From assembly GCF_003945595.2 (NCBI RefSeq), contig NW_024104403.1, positions 558,001-622,000 of the forward strand: a stretch of DNA of 64,000 nt, given 5' to 3'. The notes under the pieces were generated by a model. That model was not told where the DNA came from. It worked only from the letters and a program-made list of their open reading frames with translations, and did not search any database. A program made the position numbers and the translations under genes. The DNA comes from Pipra filicauda (taxonomy: Eukaryota; Chordata; Aves; Passeriformes; Pipridae). Below are positions 8,400-63,099 of the stretch, one piece after another; positions within the stretch are counted from its first letter, which is position 1; every line of letters begins with the position of its first letter.

Positions 8400-8668
8400 C
8401 TTGACTTTTTCTAAGTGATCCTGCAGAGAGTCAATTAGCAGATCCCCCACTGGCTGCCAGGATCCCTTGAATGCTTCAGCCTGGCGTAGTTTCAGATCCA
8501 GTTCATCCATTGCCTCTTGAAGGGCCTGCAGTCTTTCAAGAGCATCATCTATCTTCTTTTGCCAATCAGCAGACTGCACATTCAGCTTATCCCACTCAGT
8601 TCTGACCTCATCTGCTTGCCTTTGGAGAAGTTTAGTGACATGGTGGGCTCTTTCCTCAGGTGACAAAT
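8400..8668 (-). CDS. DMD: Dystrophin exon 59 (rod domain, repeats 23-24)
   Basis: This exon is 269 bp, the same length as human DMD exon 59. On the minus strand it begins after a CACATTTAG acceptor and ends AAAGTCAAG before a GTATGT donor. The frame is open. It starts with AT, which completes a codon with the last G of exon 58 (Asp), and then reads LSPEERAHHVTKLL, VRTEWDKLNVQSADWQKKID, ERLQALQEAMDELDLKLRQA and GSWQPVGDLLIDSLQDHLEK. Human dystrophin has closely similar text here (ELPPEERAQNVTRLL, EWEKLNLHSADWQRKIDE, GSWQPVGDLLIDSLQDHLEK, recalled). The spaced Trp residues and heptads are typical of spectrin-like triple helices, and the exon covers the end of repeat 23 and the first half of repeat 24. 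It ends in phase 0, as in human. It is shared by full-length dystrophin and Dp116. Confidence 0.98.
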
Positions 8669-9342: not shown

Positions 9343-9463
9343 CTCTTGTTTCTGGGCCGATCTTCTCCAGTCCCTCCACAGGCTGCTCAGCGAGGAAGAT
9401 TCGCACAGTCTCAAGTGCACTCCTGACAACAGGTTCTTTTGTTTTTATCTCCCTCTTGAAAGT
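9343..9463 (-). CDS. DMD: Dystrophin exon 58 (rod domain, repeat 23)
   Basis: This exon is 121 bp, identical in length to human exon 58. It is bounded by a TTTCTTAG acceptor and a GTAATT donor. The frame reads T-FKREIKTKEPVVRSALETVR followed by IFLAEQPVEGLEKIGPETR and one leftover G that continues into exon 59. The human counterpart, from memory, is AFKRELKTKEPVIMSTLETVR then IFLTEQPLEGLEKLYQEPR. The exon encodes part of spectrin-like repeat 23. The last eight residues (KIGPETRD) are less conserved than the rest, which fits a loop or linker between helices. The small 674 bp intron to exon 59 is a conserved feature of this part of the gene. Confidence 0.97.
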
Positions 9464-15552: not shown

Positions 15553-15709
15553 CCGATGGATGTCATTCTGTTTCTGCACAGTGGGAAGATCTCCACCAAT
15601 GGGCGCTTGCTGTTTTAATTCATCCTCTTTCAACTGCAGCCATGCTAAAAGTTCCTGAAGAGAGAGATGCAATCGCTTCCACTGGTCGGTACTGGCTTCC
15701 AAATGGGAT
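15553..15709 (-). CDS. DMD: Dystrophin exon 57 (rod domain, repeats 22-23)
   Basis: This exon is 157 bp, the same as human exon 57. It follows a TGCCTTCAG acceptor and ends CATCGG before a GTATGG donor. Its first base, A, completes the AGA codon begun by AG at the end of exon 56. The frame then reads SHLEASTDQWKRLHLSLQEL, LAWLQLKEDELKQQAPIGGD and LPTVQKQNDIHR. Human dystrophin has near-identical text (SHLEASSDQWKRLHLSLQEL, then APIGGDFPAVQKQNDVHR, recalled). Trp residues in DQWKR and LAWLQ are the usual spectrin-repeat core positions. The end of the exon is in phase 0, which joins to Thr at the start of exon 58. Confidence 0.98.
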
Positions 15710-17436: not shown

Positions 17437-17609
17437 CTAATGTTCAGAGATTTCTTCCTAAGTTCACTCCATCTGAGGTTCATGTTATCCAGGCGTCTCT
17501 GCAAGAGGGTTGCATCTTCAGAGCCTTCAAGGGACCTCAGGATTTTCTGCCCGTTTTCATCCAGGCTGTGAAAGATGTCAGTGTGAGCATCAATTTCTGC
17601 CTGTAGTTC
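17437..17609 (-). CDS. DMD: Dystrophin exon 56 (repeat 22; first shared exon of Dp116)
   Basis: This exon is 173 bp, matching human exon 56. It lies between a TTTCATAG acceptor and a GTAGGA donor. The frame is open: [57 protein letters not shown], then AG. Human text, recalled, is [57 protein letters not shown]. It encodes most of spectrin-like repeat 22. The exon starts at a codon boundary, so it can be spliced in frame either to exon 55 (ending WQ) or to the Dp116 first exon 341 bp upstream. Its lower-coordinate edge abuts the 1.7 kb intron 56. Confidence 0.98.
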
Positions 17610-17950
17610 CTATGAAAGCAATAGAAAACAATACATGTGATTTCCTAAAAAATCATAGAAACCATAATTTTTCAAAAGAGTGGAAAAATCAGTGCAACAC
17701 AGAGCACAGGTTTTGATTACTCCTTTTATGGCAGTACCATGTACTGTAGACACAGCCATGTTCCCCTTTCACATGAAGGCCTTTTGCATTGAGTGTGACC
17801 TTTCTTTCATAGAGAGCATACTGAGCAAAATGCAGATGGTTAAAAGTGTAGCCTTTGACAGGCAACAAAGGAAGGACAGGTTATATTTACTGTGCTGATG
17901 AGGGAAAAACAAACAAACACAAAACCCCCAGGGTCTCAGGTAAATCTGAC

Positions 17951-17980
17951 CTTCACGTGATACGTCTTCCGGTGCAACAT
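17951..17980 (-). CDS. DMD: Dp116 isoform-specific first coding exon
   Basis: On the minus strand an ATG at 17980-17978 opens ten codons, MLHRKTYHVK, directly followed by a GT donor (AAG|GTCAGA, donor bases 17950-17949). This matches my recollection of the unique N-terminal peptide of human Dp116 residue for residue. Dp116 is made from an internal promoter just upstream of exon 56, is expressed mainly in Schwann cells in mammals, and links the dystroglycan complex to the cell membrane through its C-terminal half. The exon ends in phase 0 and exon 56 begins in phase 0, so the join [19 protein letters not shown] is in frame. The intron between them is 341 bp. Only the coding part is given; the 5' UTR extends to higher coordinates with an unknown start. 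The donor is weaker than consensus after GT. Another frame is open across this point, but it is a shadow. Confidence 0.9.
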
Positions 17981-18180
17981 TTTCAGTTTCAGCTGGGGAC
18001 TGCAACACCGGTCCTGCTGCATAGCAGTTCCAAGAAATCTGGGTGTCTGCAGCAGCTGAGCTTTAAAATGCCAAGTTCACTTACATTCTGTTGACAGAAT
18101 GCATTTTGGAGCCCAGGCCTCAGAAGTCAATAGCAATAAACAGCCACTTTGTGCTGTACCAAAACACTGGTTGAGGCCAC
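17981..18180 (-). promoter_or_regulatory. Candidate Dp116 promoter and 5' UTR
   Basis: Location is the main evidence: this is the DNA directly upstream of the Dp116 start codon, on the minus strand. It contains a TATA-like TTTTAAA (18062-18068). About 28 nt downstream lies CCAGATT, which fits the initiator consensus YYANWYY with A at 18040. That would give a 5' UTR of about 60 nt. CAGCTG E-boxes occur just after the TATA-like site and again near 17992. A SOX-type ACAAAG lies at 18147-18152; SOX10 is a natural Schwann-cell regulator, but one hexamer is weak evidence. The start site and motif use are inferences from spacing only. Confidence 0.4.
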
Positions 18181-18501
18181 GGATGTAGGAGGGCCTGAGA
18201 ATAGCAAGGACCCAGAATGTGCAACTGGCAGCTCATGTTGAACAGCCAACTTTTCTTATCGCTCCGTAACTGCAGGCCAGCTCTACGTTTTGGATTCATT
18301 TTTCCCCCTCATTTTTAGCACGGCTGTTTCTGCCAAAAGAACATTCTTTAGAGAGCTGCCTGGTACCAGCATTCCTGCCTGCCCACACAGTCAATGCAGC
18401 CTTTGTACGCTGGCTGCCCTTCTCCAAGACGTTTGCATGCTGCAGCTCCACAAGGTCAGATTCATTCGCAGGGAACGGTGGTTGAATCAAGCCCATTAAA
18501 A

Positions 18502-18524: not shown

Positions 18525-21500
18525 TTAAACACGTACATGCGTGAGCACACACGTACTCTGTGTGCAGCCGCATTCGCTTACTTTCAAACAAAGACACAAA
18601 GAAAATGTCCTAGTGAATAAAGCTCTGCATTTTCTCCTGGGATGCTTGGGCACTAAGTTTTCTGGTGGTGGTGGTTTTCTTGCTACCCGAAATGGGAGTG
18701 CTAGGGATGAAGTGTGAAAGAGCAAGTGATTTATGGCATTTGAGAGCAAGACCCAGCACTAACTGAGCATCACAGACAGTCCCCAATGGAAATTTGTTGC
18801 AATTTTCTTTAGAAGAATGACTTTGAAGGAGGGAAGCACACAATCTGTCTACTTGGTGCATTCCTAATTGAATTGGTTTTATTTGATATTTTAAGTGCAA
18901 TGTTAGCTGCACTGAATCATGAGTGGATTGTCCTTGTTCACCTACTGCTGTTCCAAATGTCCTTAACTGGATACCTATTCCTTGCAGAGCAATGACTAGT
19001 ACAGTATTTGGGGCAATTTTAAGGTGGGCTAGCAATGTCTTCAGTACAGTATAAAAGTTTTTATGCAACTATTTTACTTATCTAAGGTCATCCTAGCAGT
19101 AAAGTAGTTAGGAATGAGTTTGGATACATCAGACGTAACTCTGCAGAATCCAAATATATTATAAACACTATATGTTTATTGATTGGTGTTAAATAAGCAA
19201 TTTATATTTTTAAAAATGCCATTACTGAGGTACATAACAATGTCTAGTATTCCAGGTATGAATGCCCTTACTTGAAAATTTGTACCTTAATTCAAGTCTG
19301 AATGTTGTTAGCTTCAGCTTCTATCTGCAATACTTTATTTCTGCTTGCTTGACTGAAGAATATTCTATTACCAAATTTCTTTCTCTCCATGTATGCATTT
19401 GGAGATTTTATTTAAGCTGGGTTAAGTGTTACTATCCTGATGTAAACAGCCACGTAAGAAAGGATAAAGTTCGCAGTAAAAAAGTTAACTTTTAATTAAG
19501 TCTGTATACTTGTAAGGTCCTTCCACATTTAAAAAATGATAAATCTATTCTGAATAGAAAGAATGAAAGGGTAAAAGAATTATACGCACTAACTCTTGCA
19601 CAAAGTCCTTAGTTTTTAGGATGGTGATGGAAAGAGCTGCCTTCTCCTCTGAAAGAACATGTGCCATGAAACATGTTCAATAACAATTCACAGTAGGAAG
19701 CTGTCAAATTTATGCCCTCTTGGTGTTTTACCACACATTTACTCATAGCATTTTATAAGACAAAATTTTAAAAAAAAGGCTTTCTGTATTTTTCTTGTTT
19801 TTAGAAAAAGTGTCTTGAAGTTTGTACATTTTGTAGTTCTCTCCTGACACATACATAATTCTGAAAAGAAATTAAGCCATATCCTTTTTTATTTCAGAAT
19901 ACTATATAGAATCACAATACATCTGGACAGTTAGTTAAGTAGGAAACAAACATGAAAAGGGGAGTATTCTTGACAAAACCTTAGCATTCAAGACTTGGTC
20001 TTCCTTATTCCAGATTACTTGTGTATACTGCACTACTTTTAATGCTCCCAGAAGAAGTTTATTCCAGCCATGCAGGAAGCCTACACAGAAGAAAGGCAAC
20101 AACAAAGATATTTACTCCATTTTGGTTGGTGCATTTTAGTTCCTTTCTTTGTGACACTTTCACATCCCAAGAGAAGCAGAGAGCATATAATAAAAAGATC
20201 TATATACCTTTTATTTGTTTTCTGAAATAAAGAATGTCCATGTCTCAAAAGTACAATATGAACTAGGTTCTTTTTCTTGGCAATGATAAAGCAGGAAGAT
20301 CTACTTAACCTCAAAAATGGCTGTTATTTGTAAAAGTGTGCTGCGATTACACATCATACCTAGAAGTACAGCATATAGACTAAATACATATTATTTATTG
20401 TATTTTCATCTTTTCCAAAGTGTTCAAACACATGGAGAGACCATAGAGATAAAAAAATCAATCCTGGTATAATTCTACTGGGTTACAATTGGACTGTGTG
20501 GTGCATTTTTGCTGTAGTGGTTATTACTGAGGCTGTGTGGAAGATTTCTATCTGCTCTAAAAAAAAGTTGAGAGCAAAATAAAAAGCATCTTTTTGATCA
20601 CAAGTTACTGCTTTGAGTGAGTTGAACTGCTTGGAAAGAACTGCAACTCCATCAGGCACAGATTTGTCTAAGAATTTCAGAGTGAAATCCTCCTTTATTA
20701 AGATGAATTATAAATTTAGATGATAATAAGTAACATAATATTTGTTCGTAGAAACTTAGCTGAATAGCTATTAGTGGTTTCTTTTAAAAATGTGTATTTA
20801 CATTATTTTACTATATAGAGCAAGTCTGGAACTAAGACACAGAACTGGAATGATAAAGAGATGAAGTACACTTGTCTTGAGGGAAACAACCTTCTTGGAC
20901 AAAACTGGGTGAGGAAATTTGCTCTGGCTGTTTCACTTTTGTCCTGAGCCCTTGAAACCATTGCACGATTTTAGGGGAGAAGTACACTAGTGTTTTAAGA
21001 CAGCACACCCAACACTGCCAGAAAGCCAGAGCAAAATACTTGCCCAGTTCAATACAAGTTTTGGCATAATACTTGCCCAATTCAGCTGTCACCCTTGGAA
21101 CTACTGCTGCCATTCCCCACAGGAGCCCACATTCTCACTGCCCTAATTCTTTCGGTAGGTAAAAGAGATTCACCTGTGGCTCCACAAGTTTTATTTTATA
21201 CAGTGCCCTGCTAAGCACAGCAGGGCTGTCGCAGTGAAATCTAATGCATCAGAAGTTCAGTATACTTCATGTCCCACATGCAACACATAGACATATAAAG
21301 GACACGAGACGTCAAAATCTGCCATTATTTCAGCAATACATCAGAGAAGGATTGGTAGTCTGGAAGTAAAACGAAGTCCTAGAAAGAAGGACTCAGTTAT
21401 ACTTCTTGGACTACAGATAAGTCATACTAAAACATGGAAATTAATGCAGCACAGCTGACAAAACATTTATCTTTTATGCAAGGTAAACCAAATTAATTAT

Positions 21501-22090
21501 ATAATAATTTAAAGAAATTAAAGTACTTAAATCCTCCTCTACAAACTCAGTTCCATCCTTGGAATTATACTTTTTATTTCCAGTGAAGCATTTTACATTT
21601 TCTAGGTACTGTACAGAGTTACTGACGAAATAACTTACATTAATTGAGGTATGGGGGGGATAACAAAATTAAAGACCTCATTAAATAAAAACTACACAGA
21701 GAAAAAAAAATTATCTTATTGGTAGTAAATAATCAAAATGTCAGTCTGCAAAATTACATACATGTATGCAAAGCATCAGCTGTAATATTTGTGTGGCTAT
21801 ACATAGCTTAGAAGTATTATACTGTTTCTGTAATACAAATACTGAAATAGCTAGAAAAGTGATCATAAAATTACTCAAAACAAAACAAAGATCACCTCTA
21901 TAATCCCTCTCCATCTCTGTAGTTTGCTAAACTAATAATCCCCTTCATATTTGCATTAACAGAGCATACTGTATTTCCCATAAGTAATTTCTGAAAAAAA
22001 CAAACCAACAAAACATTTTAAATAGCTTATATCAGTAGAATATGCTTTATAAACCTCTTATACTGTACAGAACACTTAAATGATGTAATT

Positions 22091-22296
22091 CCTTTTTTCA
22101 TTTTCCTTTTTTCCTCTTTTCCTTTTTTCCTCCTTCCACTTTAGCTTTTCTTTTCTCTTCTTCCTTTCCTCCCCTCCTTTCCCTTCCTTTCTTTTCCTGT
22201 TTCTTTCTTCCTTTCTCTGTTCTCCTTTTTTCCTTTGCCTTTCTTGCCTCTTTCATCTCCTTCTCTCCTCCTTCCTTCCTTCCTTCCTTCTCTTTG
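22091..22296. repeat. Polypyrimidine tract with CCTT tandem repeats
   Basis: About 205 bp are nearly pure C and T on the plus strand, with rare purine interruptions. The right end (22270-22290) is about five copies of CCTT. On the transcribed (minus) sense this is a purine-rich run, which explains the open frame full of Lys, Glu and Arg on that strand; it is not a gene. Mirror-symmetric parts could form triplex DNA. Confidence 0.95.
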
Positions 22297-57282: not shown

Positions 57283-57768
57283 TTATTTCACAGACACTTC
57301 TTGAACTCTGTCAGGCTTGGTGCTGTGACCACTTCCCTGGGGAGCCTGTTCCAGTGCCCAACCACCTTCTCGGTGGAAAACCTTTTTCTAATACCCAACC
57401 TAAACCTCTTCAGGCCATTCCCTTGGGTCCTGTCACCGGTCCCCACAGAGAAGAGATCAGCGTCTGCCACTCCTCTTCCCCTCACAAGGAAGTTGTAACT
57501 GCAGTGAGATCTCCCTTCAGTCTCCTCCAGGCTGAACAGACCAAGCCACCTCAGCTGCTCCTCATCCAGCTTCCCCTCAAGGCCCTTCACCGTCTTCATT
57601 GCCCTCCTTTGGACACTCTCCAACAGGTTAATATCCTTCTTATTTTGTGGTGCCCACAACTGCACAAAATATTCAAGGTGAGGCCACACCAGAGCAGAGC
57701 AGAGCGGAGCAATCCCCTCCCCAGCCCAGCCAGTGATGCTTTGCCTGATGGTCCTCCTGGCTGCAGTA
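57283..57768 (-). mobile_element. CR1 LINE fragment (RT C-terminus), 3' truncated
   Basis: The minus-strand frame at 57288-57689 reads MWPHLEYFVQLWAPQNKKDI, NLLESVQRRAMKTVKGLEGK, LRWLGLFSLEETEGR and VVGHWNRLPREVVTAPSLTE. This is the C-terminal part of CR1 ORF2 reverse transcriptase. The open frame ends at the left edge of the copy; the last part of ORF2 and the 3' UTR with its tail are missing. To the right, similarity stops near 57768. The long plus-strand frame at 57354-57911 is the antisense of this element. Confidence 0.9.
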
Positions 57769-58491
57769 AAGTTGGAAACAATTTTTTATCTCTCAAAGAA
57801 CCTATTCTGCTACATAATCAAGAAGTGTCAGGAATATGTATCTACCTCAGTTTCTTACTACTGAAAAAAACCAGCTGCCTGGACACCTTGAAAACAAGTG
57901 AGCACCTTTGAAGTACTGATAGAAATAGAAGAGACAAGAGTACCTTGCCTGCTGTTCATGTCTCTTGTCTTAGATAAAAACATCACTGTGAGAAAATAAT
58001 AGTGCTGCTCATACTATATTAAGTATATATTAAGGCAATGCATATTTTCCATATTATTAGCGGCAAAACTCCTACATCTAATTGAAAACTACTTAGGTCA
58101 TAGTGAGAAGGAAGGTGGTAATAAAAATAAATCTGCTATGTATTTCATGCCTAAGTATTAACTTTGCTTTATTTATCATATCCTGTCATACTTTCAGTCA
58201 GCCTACACTGACTACTACTACCAATAATTCATCAGTCATCATAGATTATTTCAGATACATTTGGTAACCTGTGTATATAGTATAGAAGCATTCTCCAGTT
58301 AATATTTAACTAGGTGTCACATGCAGTATTCTTTGTCAAAAAACTGTGATTATATTCATTTGCAGTCTTAATATTAATTGATTTCATTTACAAAATAATA
58401 GGATAAATCCATATTAATCTAATGTTACATAAACTGTACAAACTGTCACATACAATCATTGCTAAAAAGACAGACCAGAAGAGTACTCCTT

Positions 58492-59985
58492 AGAATCATG
58501 GAGTTCTTAAGGTTGGAAAAGACCTCTAAGACAATCAAGTTCAACCATTAACCTAGGACCACCAATTTCACCTCTACATCGTGTCCCTAAGTGACAGGGA
58601 TCCAGGAATTTTGACTCAACTACTTCCCTGGGAAGTCAGTGCTTGTTCCAAAGCTTGACAACCTTTTCTGTGAGAAAATTTTTCCTGATACCCAATCTAA
58701 ACTTCCCCAGGCACACCTTGAAGACATTTCCTCTTGGACAAAGAGACCAACTCCCATCTCACTACAACTTCCTTTCCAGTAGATACAGAGAGTGATAAGG
58801 TCTCTCCTGAGCCTCCTTTTCTCTAGGCTGAACAACACGAGTTCCCTCTGCTGCTCCTTATAGGACTTGTGCTCCAGATCCTTCACCAGCTCCACTGCCC
58901 TTCTCTGGATACACTCCAGCACCTCAGTGTTTTTCTTGAAGCAAGGGGCCCAAAACTGAACCCAGGATTCGAGGTGTGGCCTCACCAGTGCCCAGTACAG
59001 GGGAAAAATCACTGCCTTGGTCCTGCTGAGCACATGATTTCTGATACGAGCCTGGGCACACTGCTGGCTCATGTTCAGCTGGCTGTTGAGCAGCACCCTC
59101 AGGTCACTTTCCAGACACAATTGCCTCAGCCTGGAGCACTGCCTGGACCAAAGTGGAGGACCCAGGAGGTCCTGTTGAATCTCATACCACAGGCCTTGGC
59201 CCATCAATGAGAACATGAGAACAAGGGTTAGTGATTGTGAGACTTCTCCCATCTGTTTATAGAATATTTCATCTTCCTCTTCATCCTGGATGGGAGGTCT
59301 ATAATAGACTCTCACCAGGATATCTGCCTTGTTGACCTTCCCCCGATTCTTACCCATAAACCCCTAACCCTACTATTGTCACCATCATCAAGCTCTGGAC
59401 AGGCAAACCACTCCCTACCATACAGGGCTGCCCCATCGCCTCCCCTTCCTTGTCTGTCCCTTGTGAAGAGTTTATGGCCATCCATTGCAGCACTACAGTT
59501 GTGCAAGTCATTCCACCATATCTCTGTGATGTCATAGTTTTCCAGCTGCACAATGGATTCCAGCTCCTCCTGTTTGTTGCCCATGCTTCGGTGTAGGTGG
59601 ACTTCAGGTTGTTGATCCCGCCACATTTTTGGGGGGAGAACCCACTAATTCCTACATGACCATTCTCATGGTGCTTCCATTGTGTCTAACACATCAATAA
59701 CTCCTGCATCTTTGCAGCCACACGGATCTCCATCTCCCACCTCCACTGAGATGTCAGACCAAAAGTCCTCACCAGCACACCATCCCTCAAACACTGGCAT
59801 GCTGTCCCCAGGTTTATCTCCAGTGAGCCTGGTTCTAAACCTTTCTCCCCTCAAATTCAGTTTAAAACTCTTCACTAAACCCTGATAACTTCTGTGCAAA
59901 GATCCTTTTACCCCTTTGAGACAGGTGTATCCCATCTGTCACCAGCAGGCTCAGTGCCATGTAAACTGACCCATAATTATAATTA
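58492..59985 (-). mobile_element. CR1 LINE copy with large internal deletion
   Basis: Read on the minus strand from high to low coordinates, the copy contains: the end of ORF1 (TDGIHLSQRGKRIFAQKLSG in one frame near 59930); the start of the ORF2 endonuclease (SMGNKQEELES, then MDGHKLFTRDRQGRGGDG near 59430-59590, then [20 protein letters not shown] near 59270); then directly the RT C-terminus ([53 protein letters not shown]); then the 3' UTR ending near 58492 in a degenerate ATGATTCTAAG tail. The junction between endonuclease and RT lies at about 59208. Most of ORF2 is missing there. Frameshifts are present, so the copy is inactive. It is in sense orientation with DMD. Confidence 0.88.
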
Positions 59986-62909: not shown

Positions 62910-63099
62910 CTGCCACTGTTTCATGAGCTCCCGAACCATTTTGGCATCTTCTAGTGTCTTTTCTTTGTGTGTAGCATCCTGCAGGACATTTGCAGTTGTT
63001 TCAGCTTCTGTAAGCCAAGCAAGAAACTTTTCGAGATCCAGGTAGAATTGCTGCAACATTCTCAGGGCTGATTCCAGTGCTGCTTCACGCTCACCAACC
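62910..63099 (-). CDS. DMD: Dystrophin exon 55 (rod domain, repeats 21-22)
   Basis: This exon is 190 bp, identical in length to human exon 55. It follows a CTTGTGCAG acceptor and ends CAGTGGCAG before a GTAAGAGG donor. After one base G shared with exon 54, the frame reads VGEREAALESALRMLQQFYL, DLEKFLAWLTEAETTANVLQ, DATHKEKTLEDAKMVRELMK, QWQ. The human counterpart contains SEREAALEETHRLLQQFPL, DLEKFLAWLTEAETTANVLQ and DATRKERLLEDSKGVKELMK (recalled). The exon covers the end of spectrin-like repeat 21 and the start of repeat 22. It is present in full-length dystrophin and the longer short isoforms but lies upstream of the Dp116 promoter, so Dp116 lacks it. Intron 55, between here and exon 56, is 45.3 kb. 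Confidence 0.98.

What the first reader, a model, noticed from the sequence alone, without database searches (positions are those of the whole stretch)
17951..17980. Conserved Dp116 first exon: ten codons MLHRKTYHVK before exon 56
A 30-base coding exon, too short for ORF scans, sits 341 bp upstream of exon 56. It starts with ATG, encodes the same decapeptide I recall for human Dp116, ends at a GT donor, and is in the right phase to join exon 56. Identity of all ten residues between bird and mammal would show that the Schwann-cell internal promoter predates their split and that this N-terminus is under selection. Automated gene models would probably miss it.
Basis: partly seen in the sequence, partly recalled or inferred. 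Interest (0 to 1): 0.85.

Follow-up and report, generated by a model that had tools for sequence, protein, structure and literature searches.

The report
Bird dystrophin Dp116 first exon
This is the first exon of a short, nerve-type form of the dystrophin gene in a songbird-like bird; the exon is already known from mammals to fish, and here it probably codes for 24 amino acids rather than the 10 that were noticed.

Summary
On the minus strand, 17980-17951 reads MLHRKTYHVK, ends at a GT donor in phase 0, and lies 341 bp upstream of dystrophin exon 56 (17609-17437). It is the first exon (S1) of isoform Dp116; the decapeptide matches the published human one at 10 of 10 residues. Two things change the reading. 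(1) The decapeptide is only the end of the coding part. An in-frame ATG lies 14 codons upstream at 18022, giving MQQDRCCSPQLKLK-MLHRKTYHVK, which matches the human 24-mer (the proposed 'Dp118') at 20 of 24 residues and a duck record at 23 of 24; elsewhere in the window the best match to the human 24-mer is 7 of 24. (2) The conservation is not new: Jin et al. 2007 reported this exon from mammals to zebrafish, Matsuo et al. 2017 the 24-residue version. Of 118 protein records retrieved, 27 carry the exon's peptide, so gene models often include it. Small additions: an intact exon in a passerine-type bird, the mammalian S-P-R motif replaced by S-P-Q in both birds that show this segment, and a TATA-like box at the spacing predicted from the human exon. 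Transcription in this bird could not be tested.

The parts
17951..18022 (-). Coding part of Dp116 first exon S1, 24 codons: MQQDRCCSPQLKLKMLHRKTYHVK
   Evidence: Open frame and upstream ATG; 20 of 24 identical to the human 24-mer printed in PMC5664101; 23 of 24 to duck P0001
17951..17980 (-). The reported decapeptide MLHRKTYHVK (second possible start, ATG at 17980)
17945..17950 (-). Splice donor gtcaga after AAG, phase 0
   Evidence: 6.98 bits on a recalled donor matrix, equal to exon 56's donor and above exon 58's (6.81); 2.4% of 3558 GT sites on this strand score as high
18041..18041 (-). Projected transcription start if the exon is 91 bp as in human
   Evidence: Projection only (human length from PMC5664101; arithmetic)
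18061..18068 (-). TATA-like TTTTAAAG, 27 bp upstream of the projected start
   Evidence: TTTTAAA occurs 55 times on this strand of the window (0.009 per 10-bp slot), TTTTAAAG 8 times
17437..17609 (-). Dystrophin exon 56 (173 bp), splice partner of S1
62910..63099 (-). Dystrophin exon 55 (190 bp), the alternative partner in long isoforms; intron 55 is 45.3 kb here
15553..15709 (-). Dystrophin exon 57 (157 bp)
9343..9463 (-). Dystrophin exon 58 (121 bp)
8400..8668 (-). Dystrophin exon 59 (269 bp)

Best explanation
The sequence is the first exon (S1) of dystrophin isoform Dp116 in intron 55 of a passerine-type bird. A promoter just upstream starts a short mRNA; S1 is spliced in phase 0 to exon 56; the protein keeps the last spectrin-like repeats and the dystroglycan-binding C-terminal part and lacks the actin-binding end. 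Translation most likely starts at the upstream AUG (18022), giving a 24-residue N-terminus (the 'Dp118' form), with the AUG at 17980 as a possible second start by leaky scanning. Shown here: sequence, frame, donor, exon 56 partner, peptide conservation. Inferred from mammals: transcription start, glial expression, role in the dystroglycan complex of Schwann cells. Inferred from sequence only: which AUG is used.
For: Peptide and position. Human S1 is also in intron 55 just upstream of exon 56 (755 bp there; PMC5664101). 27 of 118 retrieved records have this peptide type, 10 of them MLHRKTYHVK exactly. Upstream AUG: 14-residue extension conserved with human (10 of 14), duck (13 of 14) and the beaver-led mammal cluster (11 of 14); first AUG after the projected start, with G at -3.
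Against: No transcript evidence for this bird. 20 of the 27 records start exactly at the decapeptide Met, among them stork and junco, and 3 cypriniform records have unrelated residues upstream, so the upstream start is not general. Both AUGs have a purine at -3, and the lower one has A. Jin et al. 2007 note an unconfirmed stop codon in chicken exon 1; not testable here because the window is not chicken-like.
Confidence: 0.88

Rival explanations
1. Same exon, but translation starts at the decapeptide AUG (17980), as annotated for human Dp116; the 14 upstream codons are 5' UTR whose resemblance is conserved for another reason.
For: 20 of 27 records start exactly at that Met; its -3 base is A.
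Against: The 14 upstream codons stay in frame, without a stop, at 10 of 14 residues identical to human and 13 of 14 to duck, while the S1-56 intron matches a duck model at only 13 of 31 translated residues with a stop. Gene-model starts are predictions.
Confidence: 0.25
2. A relict: the peptide is kept in sequence but the promoter is no longer used in this bird.
For: Chicken was noted to have an unconfirmed stop codon in this exon, and no expression data are at hand.
Against: Frame, donor and peptide are intact and duck keeps 23 of 24 residues.
Confidence: 0.05
3. A chance reading frame that resembles the recalled human peptide.
Against: The human peptide was checked in print. The next best place in the window is 7 of 24 and 6 of 10. 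It sits just upstream of exon 56, in phase, with a donor.
Confidence: 0.001

Closest known systems
Dp116 (S-dystrophin) exon S1 of mammals and fish (PMC5664101; PMC1790709)
   Same: Place in intron 55, phase, splice partner exon 56, decapeptide 10 of 10 with human
   Different: 341 bp from exon 56 instead of 755 bp in human; intron 55 is 45.3 kb
'Dp118', the proposed 24-residue start of the same exon (PMC5664101, section 11 read)
   Same: Upstream in-frame ATG at the same 14-codon distance; 20 of 24 residues identical to human; Cys-Cys pair kept; Pro at residue 9 as in the other species of that paper
   Different: Q5R, R10Q and F11L against mammals: the S-P-R motif discussed there as a protein kinase C site is S-P-Q here and in duck
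G-utrophin (Up113) first exon, the utrophin counterpart (PMC1790709, passages and section 5; PMC5664101 section 6)
   Same: According to those papers, a first exon in intron 55 before exon 56, with residual similarity to that of Dp116
   Different: Different gene; a 48-residue unique N-terminus is reported. Not compared here

Membership tests
Dp116 first exon S1 | Lies in dystrophin intron 55, shortly upstream of exon 56, same strand | tested here: met
   Exon 55 at 63099-62910, exon 56 at 17609-17437, S1 between them
Dp116 first exon S1 | Encodes MLHRKTYHVK and joins exon 56 in phase 0 | tested here: met
   human peptide from PMC5664101
Dp116 first exon S1 | Transcribed from its own promoter and spliced to exon 56 | not testable with these tools
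   No RNA data; donor and TATA-like box only
Dp116 first exon S1 | Expression in Schwann cells or other glia | not testable with these tools
   Known for mammals and the avian ciliary ganglion through PMC5664101
'Dp118' form | In-frame ATG 14 codons upstream without an intervening stop | tested here: met
   ATG at 18022
'Dp118' form | Conserved 14-residue extension | tested here: met
   10 of 14 to human, 13 of 14 to duck; but seen in only 3 of 27 S1-bearing records
'Dp118' form | Protein made from the upstream AUG | not testable with these tools
   PMC5664101 says that it is unconfirmed in human too

The most novel reading that the evidence does not exclude
The textbook ten-residue Dp116 N-terminus is a truncated reading. 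In mammals and birds the main product starts 14 codons earlier and carries a near-terminal Cys-Cys pair beside lysines that could be acylated, giving this dystrophin without actin-binding end its own membrane attachment. The earlier start would be an amniote or tetrapod feature, while fish start at or near the decapeptide.
Probability: 0.35. Interest if true: 0.45.

Novelty: already known. Interest (0 to 1): 0.2.

Why it matters
It shows an intact Dp116 first exon in a passerine-type bird, where a 2007 paper noted an unconfirmed stop codon in chicken. It supports the proposal that the 10-residue Dp116 misses 14 conserved residues; transgenes made to test Dp116 in dystrophic mice used the short form (PMC5664101). 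Otherwise it is an ordinary, known alternative first exon.

Tried and rejected
Chance match: rejected. A second copy of the exon in the window: none. Stronger-than-average selection on the decapeptide: over the 23 S1-bearing records of the first search its mean identity to the window is 0.848, the same as exon 56 (0.848); against the mammal cluster 10 of 10 has P 0.098 at the exon 56 rate, so no excess. In catfish P0115 it is 10 of 10 against 30 of 58 (P 0.0014); that test was picked after seeing the data. SOX and TEAD motifs in 18000-18450: ACAAWG 2 hits (0.28 expected), its reverse 0 (0.37); GGAATG 1 (0.13), its reverse 0 (0.11); not used as evidence. A paper on Schwann-cell promoters does not mention dystrophin in its main text. 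The original paper on Dp116 in the avian ciliary ganglion was not among the 10 of 239 papers listed; I know it from one sentence of PMC5664101. Passages on Dp116 in PMC10377302 and PMC4932663 added nothing on birds. No Rfam family reached its gathering score in the window. Codon-level test against a mammal: only a 19-base dog primer from PMC7372313 was at hand (14 of 19 identical, compared by eye), too little. No shark record with the S1 peptide was seen: the Callorhinchus records have exon 55 or an unrelated start.

Full report
What is there. On the minus strand, 17980-17951 encodes MLHRKTYHVK, followed by the donor gtcaga. The gene around it is dystrophin: exons 55 (63099-62910), 56 (17609-17437), 57 (15709-15553), 58 (9463-9343) and 59 (8668-8400) were found by tblastn with recalled human peptides and set to splice sites by reading the sequence. 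S1 to 59 joined read through 264 codons without a stop. The exon 56-59 protein matches the dystrophin chain 9c3c_D over its whole length at E 4.7e-129, and S1-59 has spectrin repeats in Pfam. Exon 55 and S1 both end on a full codon, so either can join exon 56.

Which bird. Exons 55 and 56 together are identical at 121 of 121 residues to a record of Pseudopipra pipra (P0018; a manakin, recalled) and at 119 of 121 to three zebra finch records. The window is therefore probably from a passerine, perhaps a suboscine, and not from chicken. This rests on one short stretch and on the records that the search returned.

More than chance. A six-frame scan of the window against the human 24-mer gives 20 of 24 at this place and at most 7 of 24 elsewhere; for the last ten residues it is 10 of 10 here and at most 6 of 10 elsewhere. 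The S1 donor scores 6.98 bits on a recalled matrix, as much as exon 56's donor; 2.4% of 3558 GT sites on the strand reach it.

The exon is longer than reported. The frame is open from a TGA at 18079, and an ATG at 18022 gives MQQDRCCSPQLKLKMLHRKTYHVK. Matsuo et al. 2017 (PMC5664101; abstract, passages and sections 6 and 11 seen) print the human counterpart MQQDQCCSARFKLKMLHRKTYHVK, call the longer product Dp118, and give S1 as 91 bp, 755 bp upstream of exon 56. They say that nine animal proteins share one 24-residue sequence. The window differs from human at 4 of 24 residues; one of these, Pro at residue 9, is the state the paper gives for other species. Against the beaver-led mammal cluster (P0002) it differs at 3 of 24.

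Promoter. Placing the human exon length on the bird gives a start at 18041. TTTTAAAG begins at 18068, 27 bp upstream. On the minus strand of the window TTTTAAA occurs 55 times (0.009 per 10-bp slot) and TTTTAAAG 8 times. This fits a TATA-type core promoter but is no proof. With that start, 18022 is the first AUG, since the ATGs at 18104 and 18086 lie upstream of it. Base -3 is G at 18022 and A at 17980.

Relatives. The first protein search (window-derived residues 1-82 scored) listed 108 records, of which 23 have an S1-type peptide. In three of the 23 it is not directly at exon 56: two sturgeon models carry two more residues, and one snake model reads into the intron. The second search (sturgeon query) listed 95, 7 of them new, 1 with the peptide. 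The third (catfish query) listed 4, 3 of them new, all 3 with it. That makes 27 of 118 distinct records, some from the same species (for example three from one sturgeon). The other 91 have exon 55 or other, partly model-made, sequence before exon 56. MLHRKTYHVK is exact in 10 of the 27: duck, beaver, hamster, stork, gecko, monitor, catfish and three cypriniform fish. Junco has MLHRKTYHVQ, two snakes MLHKKTYHVK, four sturgeon records MLHRKTYNVK, ten frog records variants such as MLHRRKYNVK. The MQQ extension is seen in 3 of 27 (duck, the mammal cluster, hamster); 20 start exactly at the decapeptide Met, the catfish two residues before it, and three cypriniform records have unrelated residues upstream.

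Strength of conservation. Over the 23 records of the first search, decapeptide and exon 56 have the same mean identity to the window (0.848 each): it is conserved like ordinary dystrophin coding sequence, not more. In the catfish and cypriniform records, where exon 56 falls to 30-35 of 58, the decapeptide stays 10 of 10. Waterfowl give a local contrast: S1 is 23 of 24 with duck P0001; the S1-56 intron is 13 of 31 translated residues, with a stop on the window side, against a duck model that reads intron (P0055); and a block upstream of S1 is 16 of 16 against a goose model (P0063).

What was already known. Dp116 in glia of the avian ciliary ganglion is mentioned in PMC5664101. In the listed rows of searches I saw no paper on a passerine Dp116 exon; the library holds open-licence papers only and the lists are capped.

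Two small new points. First, S-P-R, the mammalian motif discussed as a protein kinase C site, is S-P-Q in the window and in duck, so that site is not shared by these birds, while the Cys-Cys pair is. Second, the exon is intact in this bird, so a stop in chicken, if real, is not general for birds.

How it most likely works. As in mammals, an internal promoter in intron 55 makes a short dystrophin that keeps the dystroglycan-binding end and lacks the actin-binding end, in Schwann cells and other glia (mammalian facts from PMC5664101). The step from sequence to expression in this bird is inferred. So is the choice of AUG: the upstream one is favoured by peptide conservation with human and duck and by being first, but most non-mammalian records retrieved do not show it.

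Noticed in passing
18338-18385 (minus): Translated stretch WAGRNAGTRQLSKECS, about 320 bp upstream of the upstream ATG, is identical (16 of 16) to the start of a goose dystrophin gene model (P0063) that has no start Met. It may be a conserved promoter-side element or transcribed leader; the goose model itself looks artificial.
   Followed up: partly
57288-57785 and 58620-59363 (minus): Long open frames whose translations look to me like decayed avian CR1-type LINE reverse transcriptase (recalled likeness; no search made); local GC is the highest of the 4-kb bins (0.409).
   Followed up: no
18610-19068 (minus): 152-codon open frame without evidence of a gene, a few hundred bases upstream of S1.
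   Followed up: no
22089-22285: Pyrimidine-rich tandem repeats, periods 8, 16 and 47.
   Followed up: no
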